From a virus, in IMG/VR virus record IMGVR_UViG_3300027704_000064, positions 1 to 37,636 of that record: 37,636 nucleotides of DNA; one strand, written 5' to 3'. This document shows, piece after piece, positions 1 through 7,579 of the stretch; position 1 is the stretch's first letter, and the number at the start of each line of letters is the position of its first letter. The translations under genes and the position numbers were made by a program. The notes under the pieces are model-generated. The model searched no databases, had not been told where the DNA came from, and was given only the letters and a program-made list of their open reading frames with translations.

Positions 1-135
1 AAGCAGATAGCCGCTAGGGGTAACCCTGTAGCTAAACATGCTAGGGCGTTTAACCTAGCGCACACTTTCGAGGACCGTAAGGCGAAGTCTAAGCGTGGGC
101 ATCGTAAACATAAGGGAGTACAGATAGATGAGTAA
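1..135 (+). CDS. C-terminal fragment of a small basic phage protein
   Basis: An open frame enters from the left edge and stops at 133-135, giving 44 residues with no start in the window. The visible part is very basic (RKAKSKRGHRKHKG near the end) and contains NPVAKHARAFNLAHTFEDRK. It resembles, from memory, short lysine/arginine-rich phage proteins with an NPVAK...FN...DRK...KRG..KHKG pattern; their function is not known to me, though nucleic-acid binding would fit the charge. The next gene starts inside its last codons, as expected in a tightly packed early operon. The missing start means the genome continues to the left, or joins the right end if circular. Confidence 0.55.
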   Translation, partial: KQIAARGNPVAKHARAFNLAHTFEDRKAKSKRGHRKHKGVQIDE

Positions 136-367
136 AGAAATGAGAGAGAAGCGTACTATGATGGCGTATGACCTGAGCGAGCGTAAGGCGCGCACATGGA
201 CCATAGAGGAGGCTATACAGGTCTTTACCGATAGCGACACACTCGGTCATGCGAAGGATAGAATCCTAGCCATGTACCTAGACCTGCATACCACGATGGA
301 CTACGACACACTAGAAGCAGCCTATGCACTAGCTTTTGATTCACCTAGAAGGAGTAACGCACAATGA
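128..367 (+). CDS. hypothetical early protein, 79 aa
   Basis: The frame overlaps the end of the preceding gene by 8 bases and the start of the zinc-ribbon gene by 4 bases (ATGA), typical of translational coupling. GGGAG upstream of ATG 128 serves as ribosome binding site. The protein is charged and probably mostly helical (SERKARTWTIEEAIQVFTDS...AKDRILAMYLDLHTTMDYDTLEAAYALAFDS is split here by the ellipsis only). No motif is recognised. Position suggests an early host-takeover or accessory role, but this is inference from location only. Confidence 0.6.
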   Translation: MSKEMREKRTMMAYDLSERKARTWTIEEAIQVFTDSDTLGHAKDRILAMYLDLHTTMDYDTLEAAYALAFDSPRRSNAQ

Positions 368-546
368 GATGCAACGCATGTAACGCAGCACTGACGGACG
401 CTGAGAGTGTACGTAAGAATAAAACAACAGGCAAATACTACGATTTGTGTAGGGAATGCTACCACGAATATAAAATTAATTTATTATCTATACAAAAGGA
501 CACTTTTGACACACCACCTGTTATACTAAACAAAAGGGAGACATGA
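364..546 (+). CDS. small zinc-ribbon protein, 60 aa
   Basis: Two CxxC pairs (C3-C6 and C29-C32) separated by about 22 residues form a classic four-cysteine zinc ribbon; the intervening sequence is basic (SVRKNKTTGKYYDLCREC). Small zinc ribbons of this kind in phages usually bind nucleic acid or host proteins. The tail after residue 37 (KINLLSIQKDTFDTPPVILNKRET) is less conserved-looking and overlaps a promoter-like element at 499-527, so the DNA does two jobs here. Specific role unknown. Confidence 0.65.
   Translation: MRCNACNAALTDAESVRKNKTTGKYYDLCRECYHEYKINLLSIQKDTFDTPPVILNKRET
499..527 (+). promoter_or_regulatory. phage-type promoter, GACAC-N18-TATACT (site 1)
   Basis: GACAC at 499-503, exactly 18 bases, then TATACT at 522-527, preceded by TGT (extended -10 form TGn). 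Five other sites in the window share this architecture. Predicted start near 534, giving a leader of about 95 bases before the gene at 630. It lies inside the 3' end of the zinc-ribbon gene. Confidence 0.6.
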
Positions 547-585
547 TTGTTATCCTGTTGAACAATTGAAGTAACTACAAAGTAT

Positions 586-615
586 TAAATAATTGAATAA
601 CTGGATTGTACTCAT
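586..615 (+). repeat. 30-bp control repeat, copy 1
   Basis: This 30-base stretch matches 34530-34559 at 26 of 30 positions in direct orientation. The last 15 bases (CTGGATTGTACTCAT) are identical, as are the first 10 (TAAATAATTG). It lies in the 5' leader of the gene at 630, just before the ribosome binding site GGGAG. The region 547-629 otherwise holds no gene. Probably a protein-binding site or a regulatory RNA element. Confidence 0.6.
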
Positions 616-629
616 AAGGGAGAAGTGGC

Positions 630-1022
630 ATGGCATTTAACAACAGGACAAGGGCGGCACAGTTGATTGACTTTGAGGGATTATCCTGGGGGAAGCTCCG
701 GCCTACAGACATAGATTTGTCAATTGACTGGCAAGGCAAGACGTTTGTGTTTGTGGAGTTAAAGAGTGGACATGCAGCCCTGACAGTAGGCCAGCGTATA
801 CACCTAGAGGGGCTAGTTAGGGCGATAATGAGAGGAGGCAAGACAGCCTACGCTATCTACGCGCAGCACGATACGCCCACCACAGAGGACGTTATGGCGA
901 AAGATGCAGTAGTTAATTCGGTATTTAATGGCATGAGTTGGTCAAGAGAGGACACAGGCAGTAGTTTGTATGATATACTAAACAAAATGCACGAAACCCA
1001 CCTAGAGGAGCAGTCAGTATGA
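630..1022 (+). CDS. PD-(D/E)XK-like nuclease family phage protein, 130 aa
   Basis: Shows the layout of a small PD-(D/E)XK fold: TDID around residues 26-29, then a beta strand with FVFVELKSG (E43-x-K45) and a following glutamine in VGQR (Q55), a typical order of D, E-x-K and Q. Many podoviruses carry a similar protein of about 120-135 aa with the signature TDID...F.E.K...GQR. Function unproven; a DNA nuclease or a degenerate DNA-binding relative are both possible. It is preceded by promoter site 1 and contains promoter site 2 near its 3' end. The start at ATG 630 has GGGAG 9-13 bases upstream. The next gene overlaps its stop. Confidence 0.6.
   Translation: MAFNNRTRAAQLIDFEGLSWGKLRPTDIDLSIDWQGKTFVFVELKSGHAALTVGQRIHLEGLVRAIMRGGKTAYAIYAQHDTPTTEDVMAKDAVVNSVFNGMSWSREDTGSSLYDILNKMHETHLEEQSV
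951..979 (+). promoter_or_regulatory. phage-type promoter, GACAC-N18-TATACT (site 2)
   Basis: GACAC at 951-955 and TATACT at 974-979, 18 bases apart, with TGA directly before TATACT and AAAC after it, as in site 1. It lies inside the nuclease-like gene and would start transcription near 986, just upstream of the gene at 1019. Confidence 0.5.
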
Positions 1023-1378
1023 AGACTACAGTAGACCCAAACGGACAGTACAAAGGCATAGCAAAAAATAAGCTAATACAGGCCGCTGGTCTGTTGCCTT
1101 TATTTGCACAAGATGTGTCTATGAGCAAACCTGACGGCATACAGGAGTGTTTCGACATGCTGATGGAGTGCTACGGTTTCGGAGGCAGTCAAGATGGCTC
1201 TGGCTGGGGTACAATAGCCCCTGACACTGGCGTGTATACCTCTGAGCATGAGGGTGACCCCGACATGGACCCTTTGATTAAGTTCGAGATAACACCAGAG
1301 CTAACGTGGTACGTCTACCAGTACGCCATTACAGGCCTCACAGACGGTGATAAGACAATGATAGTGAGGATGGACTAA
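1019..1378 (+). CDS. hypothetical protein, 119 aa
   Basis: Start overlaps the previous stop (ATGA-type). The N-terminal part may be helical (GIAKNKLIQAAGLLPLFAQ); the middle is rich in Gly and Asp (GFGGSQDGSGWG), and the C-terminal part alternates hydrophobic and polar residues (KFEITPELTWYVYQYAITG). Acidic overall. It may be expressed from the promoter-like site at 951. No family recognised. Confidence 0.55.
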   Translation: MKTTVDPNGQYKGIAKNKLIQAAGLLPLFAQDVSMSKPDGIQECFDMLMECYGFGGSQDGSGWGTIAPDTGVYTSEHEGDPDMDPLIKFEITPELTWYVYQYAITGLTDGDKTMIVRMD

Positions 1379-1379
1379 C

Positions 1380-1595
1380 ATGATATGCGAATTCAGTTTT
1401 AAAGGTGCGCCTGTGTACATACGGGCAGCATCAATCATTGCAATTATGCAAGATAGTACATCCGTGGGGAGAACGGTAATATTCACAGAACCACCGCTAG
1501 ACTCTATCATAGTCGATGAGAGTGTAGACGTTGCTTTTGAGGAGTGGTACATTAACCTGAACGAAGCCGATGAAGGGAGTGAAGACGATGACTGA
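1380..1595 (+). CDS. hypothetical acidic protein, 71 aa
   Basis: Starts two bases after the previous stop. The sequence reads as short beta strands (FSFKGAPVYIRAASIIAIMQD; GRTVIFTEPP) and ends in a strongly acidic tail (NEADEGSEDDD). The arrangement 'I.AI......GRTVI......IIVDESVD' recalls small FlbD-like/DUF phage proteins, but the match is weak. The next gene begins inside its last codons. Function unknown. Confidence 0.55.
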   Translation: MICEFSFKGAPVYIRAASIIAIMQDSTSVGRTVIFTEPPLDSIIVDESVDVAFEEWYINLNEADEGSEDDD

Positions 1596-1770
1596 ATACA
1601 CATTGTGGCGTAACGGTAAACTACAGGGAACGTACGACGGCAAACCGGAGGCTATGAACGCATGGGACAAGCTAGTTGGGTACGCTATAGCACCCGACAT
1701 GGTACGCCTGAAGAAAGACGACCACATCTTGTCAGAATACACACCGATGCCAGAGAGGAACTTACGATGA
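1588..1770 (+). CDS. hypothetical protein, 60 aa
   Basis: ATG 1588 is chosen over the in-frame ATG at 1570 because GGGAG at 1574-1578 lies at a proper distance before 1588 and the overlap with the previous gene is then only 8 bases. The protein (MTEYTLWRNGKLQGTYDGKP...) is short, with alternating charged and aromatic residues and no known motif. Next gene overlaps by 4 bases. Confidence 0.55.
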   Translation: MTEYTLWRNGKLQGTYDGKPEAMNAWDKLVGYAIAPDMVRLKKDDHILSEYTPMPERNLR

Positions 1771-1883
1771 GCGTACTAGGCGTAATAGTAACGGGGTGGC
1801 TAATATTTTCTGCTACCCTTATCATAGGAATCTGGACGTACCAATTTGCCCTATTAAAATTTGGGAGAGAAAACGATGAGTGA
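1767..1883 (+). CDS. single-span membrane peptide, 38 aa
   Basis: Too short for most gene callers. ATG 1767 follows GAGAGGA at a reasonable distance and overlaps the preceding stop by 4 bases; the frame ends at 1883. Residues 2-28 are almost all hydrophobic (VLGVIVTGWLIFSATLIIGI...), followed by a short charged tail (KFGRENDE). That gives one transmembrane helix with the tail probably in the cytoplasm. Small early membrane peptides may act in superinfection exclusion or membrane targeting, but no family is recognised. Confidence 0.55.
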   Translation: MSVLGVIVTGWLIFSATLIIGIWTYQFALLKFGRENDE

Positions 1884-2079
1884 TATGCGCGGGTTGTTCG
1901 ATGAAATGTCAGAAGGTGAGAGATGCCACATGGTCAATCTCTTGTACAAAGAGGGCTACGTGCCTGTTAAGCTGAGGAAACTACTAGAGGACGCAGAAGA
2001 AACAAAGCGTGAGTTCGACATAGTGGACAGCGCGTGTGACCATTGGAAACAGACAGCGGAGGACTTAGGCCATGTTTGA
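1876..2079 (+). CDS. hypothetical protein, 67 aa
   Basis: Starts at ATG 1876, overlapping the membrane peptide gene by 8 bases, with GGGAGA at 1863-1868 upstream. Sequence is helical and charged (RKLLEDAEETKREFDIVDSACDHWKQ), likely a small helical bundle or coiled coil. Ends overlapping the acyl-carrier-like gene. Function unknown. Confidence 0.55.
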   Translation: MSDMRGLFDEMSEGERCHMVNLLYKEGYVPVKLRKLLEDAEETKREFDIVDSACDHWKQTAEDLGHV

Positions 2080-2371
2080 AGCAGACGAGCGCGACCCATG
2101 TTGGGATTGCGTGATAGATATACGTAGAGCAGTACGGCTGGACATGGAGGAAGGCGGCTACGAGAGATGGGAGGACGTAGATTCTCTGGGTAAGTTAGAA
2201 ATCCTGGCTGGGATAGAAGACCAGATGGACGTTAACATACCTATAGATGCCGTGGAGCATGTACATAGTTTGGACGAGTTCGTAGAGGCTTGTTATGGCG
2301 TTGTAAGGGCGTACCACTGGGCCTTGTGGTCTAAGGGCATGATACCTAAAACTAAAGGGGAGAGCAAATAA
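2072..2371 (+). CDS. acyl-carrier-protein-like small protein, 99 aa
   Basis: Residues about 14-85 read like an acyl/peptidyl carrier protein. Helix I-like VIDIRRAVRLDMEE is followed by a loop and DVDSLGKLEILAGIEDQM (D37-S38-L39), then VNIPIDAVEHVHSLDEFVEA. In carrier proteins the order is DSL, a helix with E..alle..f, then I.IP......i.Tv.d.v, and the Ser of DSL carries 4'-phosphopantetheine. The conserved GxDSL glycine is Val here (VDSL), and an extra C-terminal segment (YHWALWSKGMIPKTKGESK) is present. No ketosynthase or other fatty-acid enzyme is encoded nearby, so a role would rely on host enzymes. It could also be an unrelated helical protein. Confidence 0.45.
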   Translation: MFEADERDPCWDCVIDIRRAVRLDMEEGGYERWEDVDSLGKLEILAGIEDQMDVNIPIDAVEHVHSLDEFVEACYGVVRAYHWALWSKGMIPKTKGESK

Positions 2372-2565
2372 TGTGGACAATTGAGATAATGAAAGAAGAA
2401 AAGGCATTAGAGCCTTACACATTTCCAGCAGAGGACGCAGAAAGAGCGGTTGAAGCGTATGAGCAGTTCCTCGTATACTTCCGCAAGGACGAGCGCTACA
2501 ATTTACAGTTGTTTTTTAACGACAGTCTAATACTAGAAAAAATTGACGAAAACGAAGATTACTAG
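2371..2565 (+). CDS. hypothetical acidic protein, 64 aa
   Basis: Starts on the last base of the previous stop (TAATG), with GGGGAG upstream. An acidic small protein (MWTIEIMKEEKALEPYTFPAED start; KIDENEDY end) with a likely beta-alpha-beta pattern: WTIEIM strand, AERAVEAYEQFLVYF helix, YNLQLFFNDSLILEKI strands. It is the last gene before promoter site 3. No family recognised. Confidence 0.55.
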   Translation: MWTIEIMKEEKALEPYTFPAEDAERAVEAYEQFLVYFRKDERYNLQLFFNDSLILEKIDENEDY

Positions 2566-2594
2566 GACACAAACCGAATAACCCGTGGTATACT
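2566..2594 (+). promoter_or_regulatory. phage-type promoter, GACAC-N18-TATACT (site 3, replication genes)
   Basis: GACAC at 2566-2570, 18 bases, TGG then TATACT at 2589-2594. It starts at the very end of the upstream gene and would initiate near 2601, giving a leader of about 60 bases for the SSB gene. It probably drives the whole replication module. Confidence 0.65.
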
Positions 2595-2642
2595 AATGAC
2601 TAAGGTGAAGGAGAGGCACCTAATCAACCTCCCCACTTCAAC

Positions 2643-2660
2643 TAATCCTATGGAGGATTA
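2643..2660 (+). promoter_or_regulatory. hairpin enclosing the SSB ribosome binding site
   Basis: TAATCCT (2643-2649) and AGGATTA (2654-2660) are perfect inverted repeats with a 4-base loop ATGG. The Shine-Dalgarno GGAGG (2652-2656) is split between loop and 3' arm, just before ATG 2663. In the transcript this would hide the binding site, which suggests translational control of the SSB, possibly by the protein itself. Confidence 0.5.
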
Positions 2661-2662
2661 AT

Positions 2663-3067
2663 ATGACTGCACAACAAAAACAGCAAGGGTACGTAGCTAA
2701 GGGCGTTGTTGCCTTCTCTAATCTCACCGAGTGTGAGGTGTATCAGGGGCAATCAACAGGACGCTACACTGTAGTGATAACTATGGATGACGCAGAGGCA
2801 TCAAAGTTATCTGACTTCGGTGTTAAGCTCAAAGACTACGAGGGGAAAGCACAGCGTAAGTTTGCTAGCAAGTTCCCTGTCTTGGTAAAGGACTTGGATG
2901 ACAACCCAGTGAGGGGTGAGATACCCTACGGCTCCGAGGTTCGCGTTTTATGGGTGCCTAGTAAAGAGCCACACCCGCAGCATGGTGTCGGTACTTACGC
3001 AGAGCAGGTGCGTGTTGTGACGCTTGCTGAGACTTCACAGGTCGGTGGAGTACCGGAGGACTTCTAG
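2663..3067 (+). CDS. single-stranded DNA-binding protein, T7 gp2.5-like role
   Basis: 134 aa, first gene after promoter site 3 and directly upstream of primase-helicase. It contains VFQG-like YQGQSTGRYTVVITMD, GVKLKDYEGKAQRKF, GEIPYGSEVRVLW and a C-terminal acidic tail ending in PEDF. Podoviral SSBs of this type coat single-stranded DNA through an OB fold and use the acidic tail with terminal Phe to contact the polymerase, as T7 gp2.5 does. The assignment rests on motif memory, length, tail and context. Its ribosome binding site sits in a perfect hairpin, suggesting regulated translation. The primase-helicase start overlaps its stop. Confidence 0.7.
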   Translation: MTAQQKQQGYVAKGVVAFSNLTECEVYQGQSTGRYTVVITMDDAEASKLSDFGVKLKDYEGKAQRKFASKFPVLVKDLDDNPVRGEIPYGSEVRVLWVPSKEPHPQHGVGTYAEQVRVVTLAETSQVGGVPEDF

Positions 3068-4680
3068 TGTCTTATCCTGACTACGCTAAAGCAACGGTTG
3101 TGGGGCATAAGCCCTGCACCGTTTGTTCTTCTAGTGACAACGTAGCGGTGTATTCAGACGGTGGTGAGCATTGCTTTACCCCTGACTGCACCTACCACAT
3201 AAACGGCCAAGGACGGCCTAACAGGGACACAAGTATGTCAACACCCAGTACCAAATTAGATATGAACGGCACCGTGGCCGCTATACCAGACAGGCGTATC
3301 AGTAAAGCAACGTGCGCCAAGTTTGGGGTGATAGTTGAATACGGTAAAGATGGGGGCATAGATAGCCACCACTACCCATACTACAACACAAAGACTGGTG
3401 ACATAACGGCCAGCAAAAGGAGGATGTGTGCGGAGAAAAGATTTTCGTGGACGGGTGACAGAACAGACACAGGATTATTTGGACAAAATTCCTGCAAGGG
3501 TTCGGGAAAGTATCTTACAATCACGGAGGGGGAGCTTGACGCCCTCGCAGTATCTGAGATGTTCGACAATAAATGGGACGTTGTTAGCCTCAAGGACGGG
3601 GCGCAGTCAGCAGCCAGAGATGTCAAGTCACAACTGGAGTGGCTTGAGGGGTATGAGCAAATTGTTCTCTGCTTCGATTCTGACAAGGCAGGAAAGATTG
3701 CTGTTGAAGCGGTCAGAGATTTATTCAGCCCGAACAAAGTCAAAGTTATAGAGTTACCTGTCAAAGATGCTGGCGTCATGCTGGAGAATGGGCGGGTGCG
3801 GGACTTTGTTAAGGCGTTCTGGGACGCTAAGAGCTACAGCCCAGCAGGTATCGTTAAGGCTGACGAAACGTGGACTGACGTGCTGGCGTACCGAGACACG
3901 CCCTCTACTCCGTATCCGTGGGATGGCCTGAACGAGCTACTGCTAGGACAGCGCACTAAAGAAGTTAATATCTGGGCGGCAGAGACAGGCGTGGGCAAGT
4001 CGCAAACGATGCGTGAGATTATACACCACATCATCACAACTTCTGACCAGCAGGTAGGGTGCCTGATGCTAGAGGAGTCTGTCGCTAAGAGTATGCTGGG
4101 GTGGATGAGTTTCCACGCAGGGCGTCCATTGCACAGGGAGCTAGAGAACATACCAGAGGAGGAGCTGCGTAGGTACTGGGAGAAAGCCAGCGCAGGTAAT
4201 CGCTTTGTATTGTTAGACCACAAAGGATGGCAGTCTGACATTGAGGTTCTCAAGTCGCGTGTGCGCTATATGGCGAAGGCTTTAGGATGCAAGACCATCA
4301 TACTAGACCACCTCCACATCGCGCTCTCAAGCGTAGCTGGTGCCTCTGGTGACTGGTCAGGCATTGATGAGCTGGTGACGCAGTTTACAGTGCTGGCCCA
4401 GGAATGTGACATTTGCATACACATCGTCAGTCACGTAAGCGCCTCGCGCAGTCTACGTGGTTCAAAAGGAATTGAGAAGCTGGCTGACGCTGTTATTTTT
4501 TTAGAGCGCGACAAGCTCAACGAAGACGCAGAGATTGCTAACACTACGTCTGTGATTGTATCCAAGAATAGGTTTGTAGGAGACACAGGCACAGCGTGTT
4601 ACCTACGCTACGATAAATTTACAGGCCGGATGACGGAATGTCCTAAGCCTGACGCACTAGGAGTAGTGGATGAGTTCTGA
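3067..4680 (+). CDS. primase-helicase (T7 gp4-like)
   Basis: 537 aa, close to T7 gp4 (566). GTG start overlapping the SSB stop by one base, with GGAGG at 3054-3058. N-terminal zinc site C17-x2-C20 and C36-x4-C41 for primer-site recognition; TOPRIM region with TEGELDALA near residue 152 and CFDSDKAG near 200; DnaB-type helicase domain with Walker A AETGVGKS near 306, Walker B-like TIILDHLH near 411, and HIVSHVSASRSLRGS near 455. Ends in DEF, an acidic-aromatic tail likely to dock on the polymerase. It unwinds DNA and lays primers at the fork. A strong internal start at 3235 may give a shorter helicase-only form, as in T7. Confidence 0.93.
   Translation: MSYPDYAKATVVGHKPCTVCSSSDNVAVYSDGGEHCFTPDCTYHINGQGRPNRDTSMSTPSTKLDMNGTVAAIPDRRISKATCAKFGVIVEYGKDGGIDSHHYPYYNTKTGDITASKRRMCAEKRFSWTGDRTDTGLFGQNSCKGSGKYLTITEGELDALAVSEMFDNKWDVVSLKDGAQSAARDVKSQLEWLEGYEQIVLCFDSDKAGKIAVEAVRDLFSPNKVKVIELPVKDAGVMLENGRVRDFVKAFWDAKSYSPAGIVKADETWTDVLAYRDTPSTPYPWDGLNELLLGQRTKEVNIWAAETGVGKSQTMREIIHHIITTSDQQVGCLMLEESVAKSMLGWMSFHAGRPLHRELENIPEEELRRYWEKASAGNRFVLLDHKGWQSDIEVLKSRVRYMAKALGCKTIILDHLHIALSSVAGASGDWSGIDELVTQFTVLAQECDICIHIVSHVSASRSLRGSKGIEKLADAVIFLERDKLNEDAEIANTTSVIVSKNRFVGDTGTACYLRYDKFTGRMTECPKPDALGVVDEF
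3235..4680 (+). other. possible internal translation start of the primase-helicase (short helicase form)
   Basis: An in-frame ATG at 3235 (residue 57) follows AGGGA (3223-3227) with a 7-base gap, just after the zinc-binding domain ends. The product would have 481 aa and lack the zinc domain. T7 gene 4 makes such a short form (4B) from an internal start at a matching position. Confidence 0.4.
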
Positions 4681-6367: not shown

Positions 6368-7230
6368 TGGCACAAGTTGATACGTTAGTTCAAGACATAT
6401 ATAAACTACTAGAAACTAAACAGATACCAGAGGGAGTAGACATTGAGCAAGAATGTGAGGCTTTTGGGCGAACAATGGCAGACACACTACGTGAGCAGCT
6501 CCAGTCCTACAGTAGTAGTGGTAAGCTACGTCTATCAGCTATTGGAAAACCAGACAGACAACTATACCATCGTCACAATGGTGCAAAGGGAGAAGAACTT
6601 AAAGGGAGTACCTACGTTAAGTTTCTCTATGGTCACCTTGTCGAAGGAATGCTTCTTGCATTAACGTCAATAAGTGGACACAGTGTTACAGACGAGCAGA
6701 AGGAGGTAACTGTCAATGGCGTCAAGGGTCACATGGATGGTCGTATTGATGGGGTGCTTATGGACGTTAAGTCTTGTAGTTCCTTTGGGTTTAAAAAGTT
6801 TAGAGATAATAAACTGCACCAAGACGATGCCTTTGGATACATCGCACAGCTTAAAGCCTACGCTCACGCTGAAGGAGACACTACTTACGGCTGGCTTGCA
6901 ATGGATAAACAAAACGGAACTCTAGCGTGGCTACAGTACGATGAGACAGACACTACAGCCGACTACTACAACGCAATCAACTGGAATCCAGAGGAGAGAG
7001 TAGGCGATATAAAAAAGCTCGTTGGAAGCGACTTGCTTCCGGCCCAGTGTTACGAAGAAGTGCCGGATGGCAAGAGTGGAAACATGAAGTTAGCGATTGG
7101 GTGCAGCTATTGCGACTACAAGTCCTTATGCTTTCCAGCCCTGCGTACTTATTACTATGCAGGTGGTCCAAGATACTTAACCGTAGTAGCAAAAGAGCCT
7201 CGCGTTCTGGAGGTTCCAGATGAGTTTTAA
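6367..7230 (+). CDS. RecB/Cas4-like exonuclease, probable 4Fe-4S protein
   Basis: 287 aa when started at ATG 6367, which overlaps the polymerase stop (TAATG) and follows AAGGAG; an upstream ATG at 6349 has a poorer site. PD-(D/E)XK core: GHMDGRIDG (D124), then LMDVKS (D133-x-K135) and AQLKAY (QxxxY), as in RecB/Cas4 nucleases. Cysteines C30, C246, C249 and C255 give the C...C-x2-C-x5-C set that holds a 4Fe-4S cluster in Cas4 proteins. It likely takes the place of T7 gp6, degrading host DNA, removing primers and helping recombination. Ends in PDEF, like the SSB and helicase tails. The HNH gene overlaps its last 11 bases. Confidence 0.8.
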   Translation: MAQVDTLVQDIYKLLETKQIPEGVDIEQECEAFGRTMADTLREQLQSYSSSGKLRLSAIGKPDRQLYHRHNGAKGEELKGSTYVKFLYGHLVEGMLLALTSISGHSVTDEQKEVTVNGVKGHMDGRIDGVLMDVKSCSSFGFKKFRDNKLHQDDAFGYIAQLKAYAHAEGDTTYGWLAMDKQNGTLAWLQYDETDTTADYYNAINWNPEERVGDIKKLVGSDLLPAQCYEEVPDGKSGNMKLAIGCSYCDYKSLCFPALRTYYYAGGPRYLTVVAKEPRVLEVPDEF

Positions 7231-7579
7231 AATGAAGGCATGTGCGAAATGCGAGGTAGAGAAGCCCTTCACCGACTTTCATAAACATAGTCGGGGGAGC
7301 CAAGGAGTAATGTCCTACTGTAAAACGTGCGATAATGAGCGTGGAAAGTGCCGCCATCGGCGTAACAAAGTTGAGTTAATTAAATATAAGGGAGGTGCCT
7401 GCGAACATTGTGGTGGGGTTTTTCATCCAGTGCTTTACGACTTTCACCATAGAAACCCTAAAGAGAAGGAGTTTGAGATAGGAAATAAGCGCCTTGAACT
7501 ACCAGCGGTGCAGCAGGAGTTAGATAAATGTCTTCTTCTCTGCGTTAGTTGTCATCGAATGGTGCATTACAATGATTAA
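7220..7579 (+). CDS. HNH endonuclease with N-terminal zinc finger
   Basis: 119 aa. C8-x2-C11 and C34-x2-C37 form an N-terminal zinc finger (KACAKCEVEKPFTDFHKH, SYCKTCDNERG). The second half is an HNH nuclease: CEHCGG (C61, C64), the YDFHHRNP strand with H76-H77, then LDKCLLLCVSCHRMVH with C108, C111 and H112/H116. It is placed between two DNA-metabolism genes and overlaps both, as mobile HNH genes of phages often are. It probably cuts DNA at specific sites and may spread into related phages or help packaging; target unknown. GGAGG lies 7 bases before the start. Confidence 0.85.
   Translation: MSFKMKACAKCEVEKPFTDFHKHSRGSQGVMSYCKTCDNERGKCRHRRNKVELIKYKGGACEHCGGVFHPVLYDFHHRNPKEKEFEIGNKRLELPAVQQELDKCLLLCVSCHRMVHYND

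What the first reader, a model, noticed from the sequence alone, without database searches (positions are those of the whole stretch)
2072..2371. A phage-encoded acyl-carrier-like protein
The 99-aa product has D37-S38-L39 followed by the helix and 'NIPIDAVEHVHSLDEFVEA' order of carrier proteins. No fatty-acid or peptide synthesis enzymes are nearby, so it might load host acyl chains, bind host enzymes or mimic host ACP. Such proteins are rare in T7-like phages.
Basis: partly seen in the sequence, partly recalled or inferred. Interest (0 to 1): 0.6.

Follow-up and report, generated by a model that had tools for sequence, protein, structure and literature searches.

The report
Divergent carrier protein in marine phage
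A marine tailed phage carries a small early gene whose product looks like a highly divergent acyl carrier protein, the cell's fatty-acid shuttle; phage carrier proteins are already known, but this is a rare, altered version whose target in the host has not been identified.

Summary
An intact 99-codon ORF lies at 2072-2371, with D37-S38-L39 followed by a carrier-type helix. Sequence support is weak but consistent: PF00550 is below its cut-off, while NCBIfam ACP models and a profile-profile comparison give E about 1e-3 to 1e-4, always in register with the Ser. It outscored 20,000 shuffles and every unrelated ORF among 6,420. AlphaFold2 models of this protein and its 79-82% identical homologue place Ser38 at the start of helix II, and the Foldseek PDB hits are almost all acyl carrier proteins. 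Selection is purifying (dN/dS about 0.2-0.3), and the Ser is kept. It is an accessory gene: only one other phage lineage was found, and relatives with the same neighbours show an empty site. It differs from AcpP by a shorter helix I-II loop, no LGA before DSL, Gly in place of Asp after DSL, and a long conserved helix IV. No PPTase or lipid gene was found nearby. Phage-encoded ACPs are already reported, including in a podovirus, so this is a new variant of a known kind. Best guess: a host-modified specialised carrier that engages host ACP partner enzymes. Phosphopantetheinylation and function are untested.

The parts
2072..2371 (+). divergent carrier-protein gene, 99 aa
2183..2185 (+). codon of Ser38, predicted phosphopantetheine attachment site at the start of helix II
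   Evidence: position; register with ACPs; helix start
2270..2356 (+). codons 67-95: extended helix IV and conserved C-terminal tail, 26 of 29 residues identical in the homologue
1876..2079 (+). upstream 67-aa ORF of unknown function, overlaps the carrier gene start by 8 nt (ATGTTTGA); same pair in L002
2371..2565 (+). downstream 64-aa ORF, start overlaps the carrier gene stop (TAATG); no family match; not at this place in L002
2663..3067 (+). putative ssDNA-binding protein gene that flanks the insertion on the right (assignment inferred from position and acidic C-terminus)
   Evidence: no family match

Best explanation
It is a divergent, free-standing carrier protein of the acyl/peptidyl carrier fold, made from the early gene block of a marine podovirus-like phage. 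I infer that the host PPTase attaches 4'-phosphopantetheine to Ser38, and that helix II plus the unusual long helix IV and tail dock it to one or a few host ACP-partner proteins (lipid synthesis enzymes or ACP-regulated proteins). There it would act as a specialised carrier or competitor during takeover, not as a replacement for the housekeeping AcpP. Shown: gene, selection, profile similarity, Ser conservation, accessory status. Predicted: fold. Inferred: phosphopantetheinylation, docking and the takeover role.
For: Independent ACP models all align within residues 24-86 in register at the Ser: PF00550 E 0.016, PHROG 5934 'acyl carrier protein' E 0.0048, PDB ACPs E 0.027, NCBIfam ACPs E 4e-4, and 6.9e-5 for the homologue, hhalign E 9e-5 at 59.5% probability. 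It outscored all shuffles. AF2 pLDDT is 82 and 79 with Ser38 opening helix II; Foldseek PDB hits are nearly all ACPs with probability up to 1.00, and the viral library returns phage ACPs. Helix II (15/16) and helix IV with its tail (26/29) are among the most conserved parts. Computed pI is 4.5 and net charge -12, typical of ACPs. No PPTase or lipid gene was found in the phage, so any partner must come from the host.
Against: It scores below the PF00550 gathering cut-off and far below every NCBIfam ACP cut-off. Foldseek E-values are 0.1 or worse, with TM mostly 0.4-0.55 by query length. The models rest on only two sequences. The Asp that follows DSL in E. coli AcpP is Gly40, the LGA before DSL is missing, helix II with the IP motif has fewer acidic residues (5 against 8 over 21 aa), and E. 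coli M44 is Ala46. These changes could weaken PPTase or FAS docking.
Confidence: 0.55

Rival explanations
1. An unmodified ACP mimic or decoy: the fold and helix II are kept to dock on host ACP partners (AcpS, Fab enzymes, SpoT, others), but the protein carries no acyl chain and works by blocking or redirecting them.
For: Loss of the Asp after DSL and of the LGA motif, fewer acidic residues in helix II, and a conserved extra surface in helix IV and the tail. ACP helix II is the general docking surface, including for SpoT (PMC3340395).
Against: The Ser and its immediate D-S-L context are conserved in the only homologue, which a pure decoy does not need; two sequences are too few to weigh this.
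Confidence: 0.22
2. A spare housekeeping-type ACP that supports host fatty-acid or phospholipid synthesis during infection, as proposed for other phage ACPs.
For: Carrier fold and DSL Ser; phage and prophage ACPs are interpreted this way in PMC11705849 and PMC8224337.
Against: Far below AcpP equivalog cut-offs (16.9 bits against 70.45); no fab genes found; the FAS-type motif LGADSLD is changed.
Confidence: 0.13
3. A small helical phage protein that resembles carrier proteins only by chance or by convergent helix packing.
For: All single-sequence scores are sub-threshold; the first 33 residues mostly do not align; Foldseek E-values are not significant on their own.
Against: Agreement of independent models in one register, the 20,000-shuffle and 6,420-ORF controls, Ser38 at the helix II start in two models, and almost only ACPs among the PDB fold hits.
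Confidence: 0.1

Closest known systems
PF00550 PP-binding / bacterial AcpP (acyl carrier protein)
   Same: DSL Ser at the start of helix II, small acidic protein, predicted carrier fold, IP motif and register through about residue 73
   Different: below the family cut-off; shorter helix I-II loop; DVDSLG instead of LGADSLD; helix IV about twice as long with a conserved aromatic tail; 99 aa instead of about 78
PHROG 5934 'acyl carrier protein' and annotated phage ACPs (Erythrobacter phage R6L gp32, Brevundimonas phage Bajun, Olleya phage Harreka_1, Pseudomonas phage pf16, Xanthomonas phages)
   Same: phage-encoded stand-alone carrier protein, no fatty-acid genes annotated in the neighbourhoods shown
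   Different: those keep a GxDSLD-type motif (DSFD in one) and are found by tblastn with E. coli AcpP; this one has DVDSLG and no tblastn match in the phage collection
Putative ACP of the podovirus Alteromonas phage R22Y (PMC11705849), probably the ORF at L104:23774-24067
   Same: podovirus carrier-like protein with a DSLG motif
   Different: no evident similarity outside the motif by eye; a Schitoviridae phage; the match to the paper's gp30 is my inference because the held record carries no annotation
DltC-type carriers (D-alanine carrier proteins)
   Same: Gly in the same place after the Ser (recalled for B. subtilis DltC); weak DltC model match (E 0.1)
   Different: match weaker than to ACP models; no DltA-like ligase in the phage ORFs scanned

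Membership tests
acyl/peptidyl carrier protein (PF00550) | profile score above the curated cut-off | tested here: not met
   15.9 bits against 20.8
acyl/peptidyl carrier protein (PF00550) | conserved Ser in a (D/H)SL motif at the N-terminus of helix II | tested here: met
   S38; helix 38-52 in both models; conserved in the homologue
acyl/peptidyl carrier protein (PF00550) | four-helix carrier bundle | tested here: met
   predicted only: helices 13-27, 38-52, short 58-60 (58-61 in the homologue), 67-87; PDB fold hits overwhelmingly ACPs
acyl/peptidyl carrier protein (PF00550) | detectable homology beyond the motif | tested here: inconclusive
   residues 36-70 align at hhalign E 9e-5 but 59.5% probability; residues 1-33 mostly do not align
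acyl/peptidyl carrier protein (PF00550) | 4'-phosphopantetheine on the Ser | not testable with these tools
   needs mass spectrometry
bacterial AcpP of type II FAS | LGADSLD motif with strongly acidic helix II | tested here: not met
   sequence DVDSLGKLEILAGIEDQMD; 5 acidic residues against 8 in E. coli over the same 21 positions
bacterial AcpP of type II FAS | equivalog model score (TIGR00517 cut-off 70.45) | tested here: not met
   16.9 bits; homologue 20.1 bits

The most novel reading that the evidence does not exclude
A phage-evolved carrier-fold effector: the ACP scaffold was remodelled (shortened loop, extended helix IV, altered helix II) to capture one host ACP partner, for example the PPTase, a lipid enzyme or a stringent-response regulator, and so reprogram host lipid or stress metabolism early in infection.
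Probability: 0.25. Interest if true: 0.6.

Novelty: new variant of a known kind. Interest (0 to 1): 0.33.

Why it matters
The function of phage-encoded ACPs is openly described as unclear in the literature (PMC5463345). A short accessory gene with an altered docking surface, no lipid genes beside it and a natural empty-site comparison is a manageable case for asking what such proteins do, but it adds one rare variant to a known category.

Tried and rejected
Looking for more homologues: tblastn of both proteins against 50,697 phage records, viral-contig scans with this protein, its two-sequence alignment and its core and a genome-contig scan with the core gave only L001 (the same phage) and L002. 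Looking for carrier genes in relatives chosen by DNA polymerase: none among 30 records. Regex and phmmer over the 84 loci then held: only the known copies. The upstream neighbour against the ACP profile: no match, used as a control. PADLOC: no match. The PF00940 RNA polymerase search was uninformative because no control rang. A tree of carrier proteins was not attempted because only about 38 residues align. The promoter scan of 1-3200 found no more sites than shuffles. A DltC-type reading was considered from the Gly after DSL and set aside because ACP models score better.

Full report
Observation. The ORF at 2072-2371 on the + strand is intact and encodes 99 residues with D37-S38-L39. It starts inside the end of a 67-aa ORF (8-nt overlap, ATGTTTGA) and its stop overlaps the next start (TAATG), so it sits in a tightly packed, probably translationally coupled block of small genes upstream of the replication genes. 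The overlap with the upstream ORF is also present in the related contig L002. Between the window and L002 the protein is 79% identical overall (82% over the tblastn segment), differences fall mainly in third codon positions, and dN/dS is about 0.22 to 0.31, so the protein is under purifying selection.

Is it a carrier protein? No single sequence score is decisive. PF00550 gives E 0.016 and 15.9 bits against a cut-off of 20.8; PHROG 5934, annotated acyl carrier protein, E 0.0048; the best PDB chains by sequence are ACPs at E 0.027; NCBIfam ACP models reach 4e-4, and 6.9e-5 for the homologue; hhalign against an alignment of eight phage ACPs and E. coli AcpP gives E 9e-5 at 59.5% probability. All of these align the same stretch in the same register at the DSL. 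With a profile built from that alignment, the protein and its homologue are the two best of 6,420 open frames, and the protein exceeds all 20,000 shuffles of itself (13.4 against at most 11.0 bits). AlphaFold2 gives mean pLDDT 82 for this protein and 79 for the homologue, with Ser38 as the first residue of helix II in both. Foldseek against the PDB returns almost exclusively acyl carrier proteins or complexes that contain one, with probabilities up to 1.00 although E-values exceed 0.1, as is common for short helical proteins (several descriptions name the complex and not the chain). I conclude that it has the carrier fold (about 0.85).

How it differs from AcpP. The loop between helix I and the Ser is about 10 residues in the models (in E. 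coli AcpP about 20, from memory). The LGA before DSL is absent (DV here); the Asp after DSL is Gly40; over 21 positions helix II and the IP motif hold 5 acidic residues against 8 in E. coli. Helix IV runs from 67 to 87, roughly twice the usual length (comparison from memory), and with the following tail (...CYGVVRAYHWALWSKGMIPK) is 26 of 29 identical in the homologue. These look like marks of a specialised carrier, or of a binding surface adapted to a particular partner, more than of a spare AcpP; that reading is inference.

Distribution. Scans of IMG/VR, GenBank phages and one genome per bacterial species gave only two lineages: this phage (and L001, the same phage) and L002. The upstream 67-aa ORF is found in four further contigs (L089, L090, L091, L093), and none of their records has a PF00550 match. 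In the two whose ORFs I listed (L090, L093) it is followed after only about 107 bases by the same downstream gene, a putative ssDNA-binding protein (my assignment from its position before primase/helicase and its acidic C-terminus), with no carrier gene. That interval holds a TTGACA-16 nt-TATAAT promoter-like sequence in L090, L091 and L093. In addition, 0 of 30 other records with related DNA polymerases have a PF00550 match; many of those are fragments. The carrier gene and the 64-aa ORF after it are therefore best read as an accessory insertion between the 67-aa ORF and the downstream promoter region; in L002 a different small ORF follows the carrier gene. Loss from the four relatives is not excluded.

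The phage. It has primase/helicase, family A DNA polymerase, Cas4-type exonuclease, phage endonuclease I, HNH endonuclease, ribonucleotide reductase, MazG, DUF3310, peptidase M15, GTA-type holin, major head, portal and terminase genes. The nearest annotated polymerases are those of pelagiphages HTVC103P/104P at 48% identity, then other marine phages. No tRNA gene and no AcpS-type PPTase were found.

Mechanism. I infer that a host PPTase modifies Ser38 and that the protein then works with one or a few host ACP partners, as a specialised carrier or competitor. ACP helix II is the docking surface for FAS enzymes and also for SpoT (PMC3340395), and bacteria do use specialised ACPs for single pathways (AcpR in sphingolipid synthesis, PMC9386255). 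Which partner, and whether acyl transfer or competition matters, is unknown. The rivals (unmodified mimic; spare AcpP; chance resemblance) are scored in their own section.

Novelty. Phage ACPs are known: R6L (PMC5463345), R22Y (PMC11705849), Eneladusvirus jumbo phages, where they are called rare (PMC7760394), and roseobacter prophages (PMC8224337). This protein is a new, strongly divergent variant in another phage group; its interest is modest until a partner is found.

Noticed in passing
L090:3193-3299, with equivalents in L091 and L093; window 2566-2662: A TTGACA-16 nt-TATAAT sequence and a purine-rich leader precede the putative ssDNA-binding protein gene in the relatives; the window keeps part of the leader (AGGTGAAGGAGAGGCA) behind TGGTATACT.
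   Followed up: partly
window 7220-7579 and 364-546: The HNH endonuclease at 7220-7579 matches the C-terminal half of PHROG 5558 'Lar-like restriction alleviation protein'; the 60-aa ORF at 364-546 weakly matches the other half of the same family.
   Followed up: no
L104:23774-24067 (Alteromonas phage R22Y): 98-codon open frame with a GLDSLG motif, probably the 'ACP' reported in the R22Y paper; it scores only 5.9 bits with my ACP profile and has no PHROG match.
   Followed up: partly
window 1588-1770 and L002:5296-5502: A small ORF (EYTLWRNGKLQGTYDGKPEAMNAWDK) lies upstream of the carrier gene in the window, but its relative lies directly downstream of the carrier gene in L002, so small early genes shuffle around a stable pair (67-aa ORF plus carrier).
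   Followed up: no
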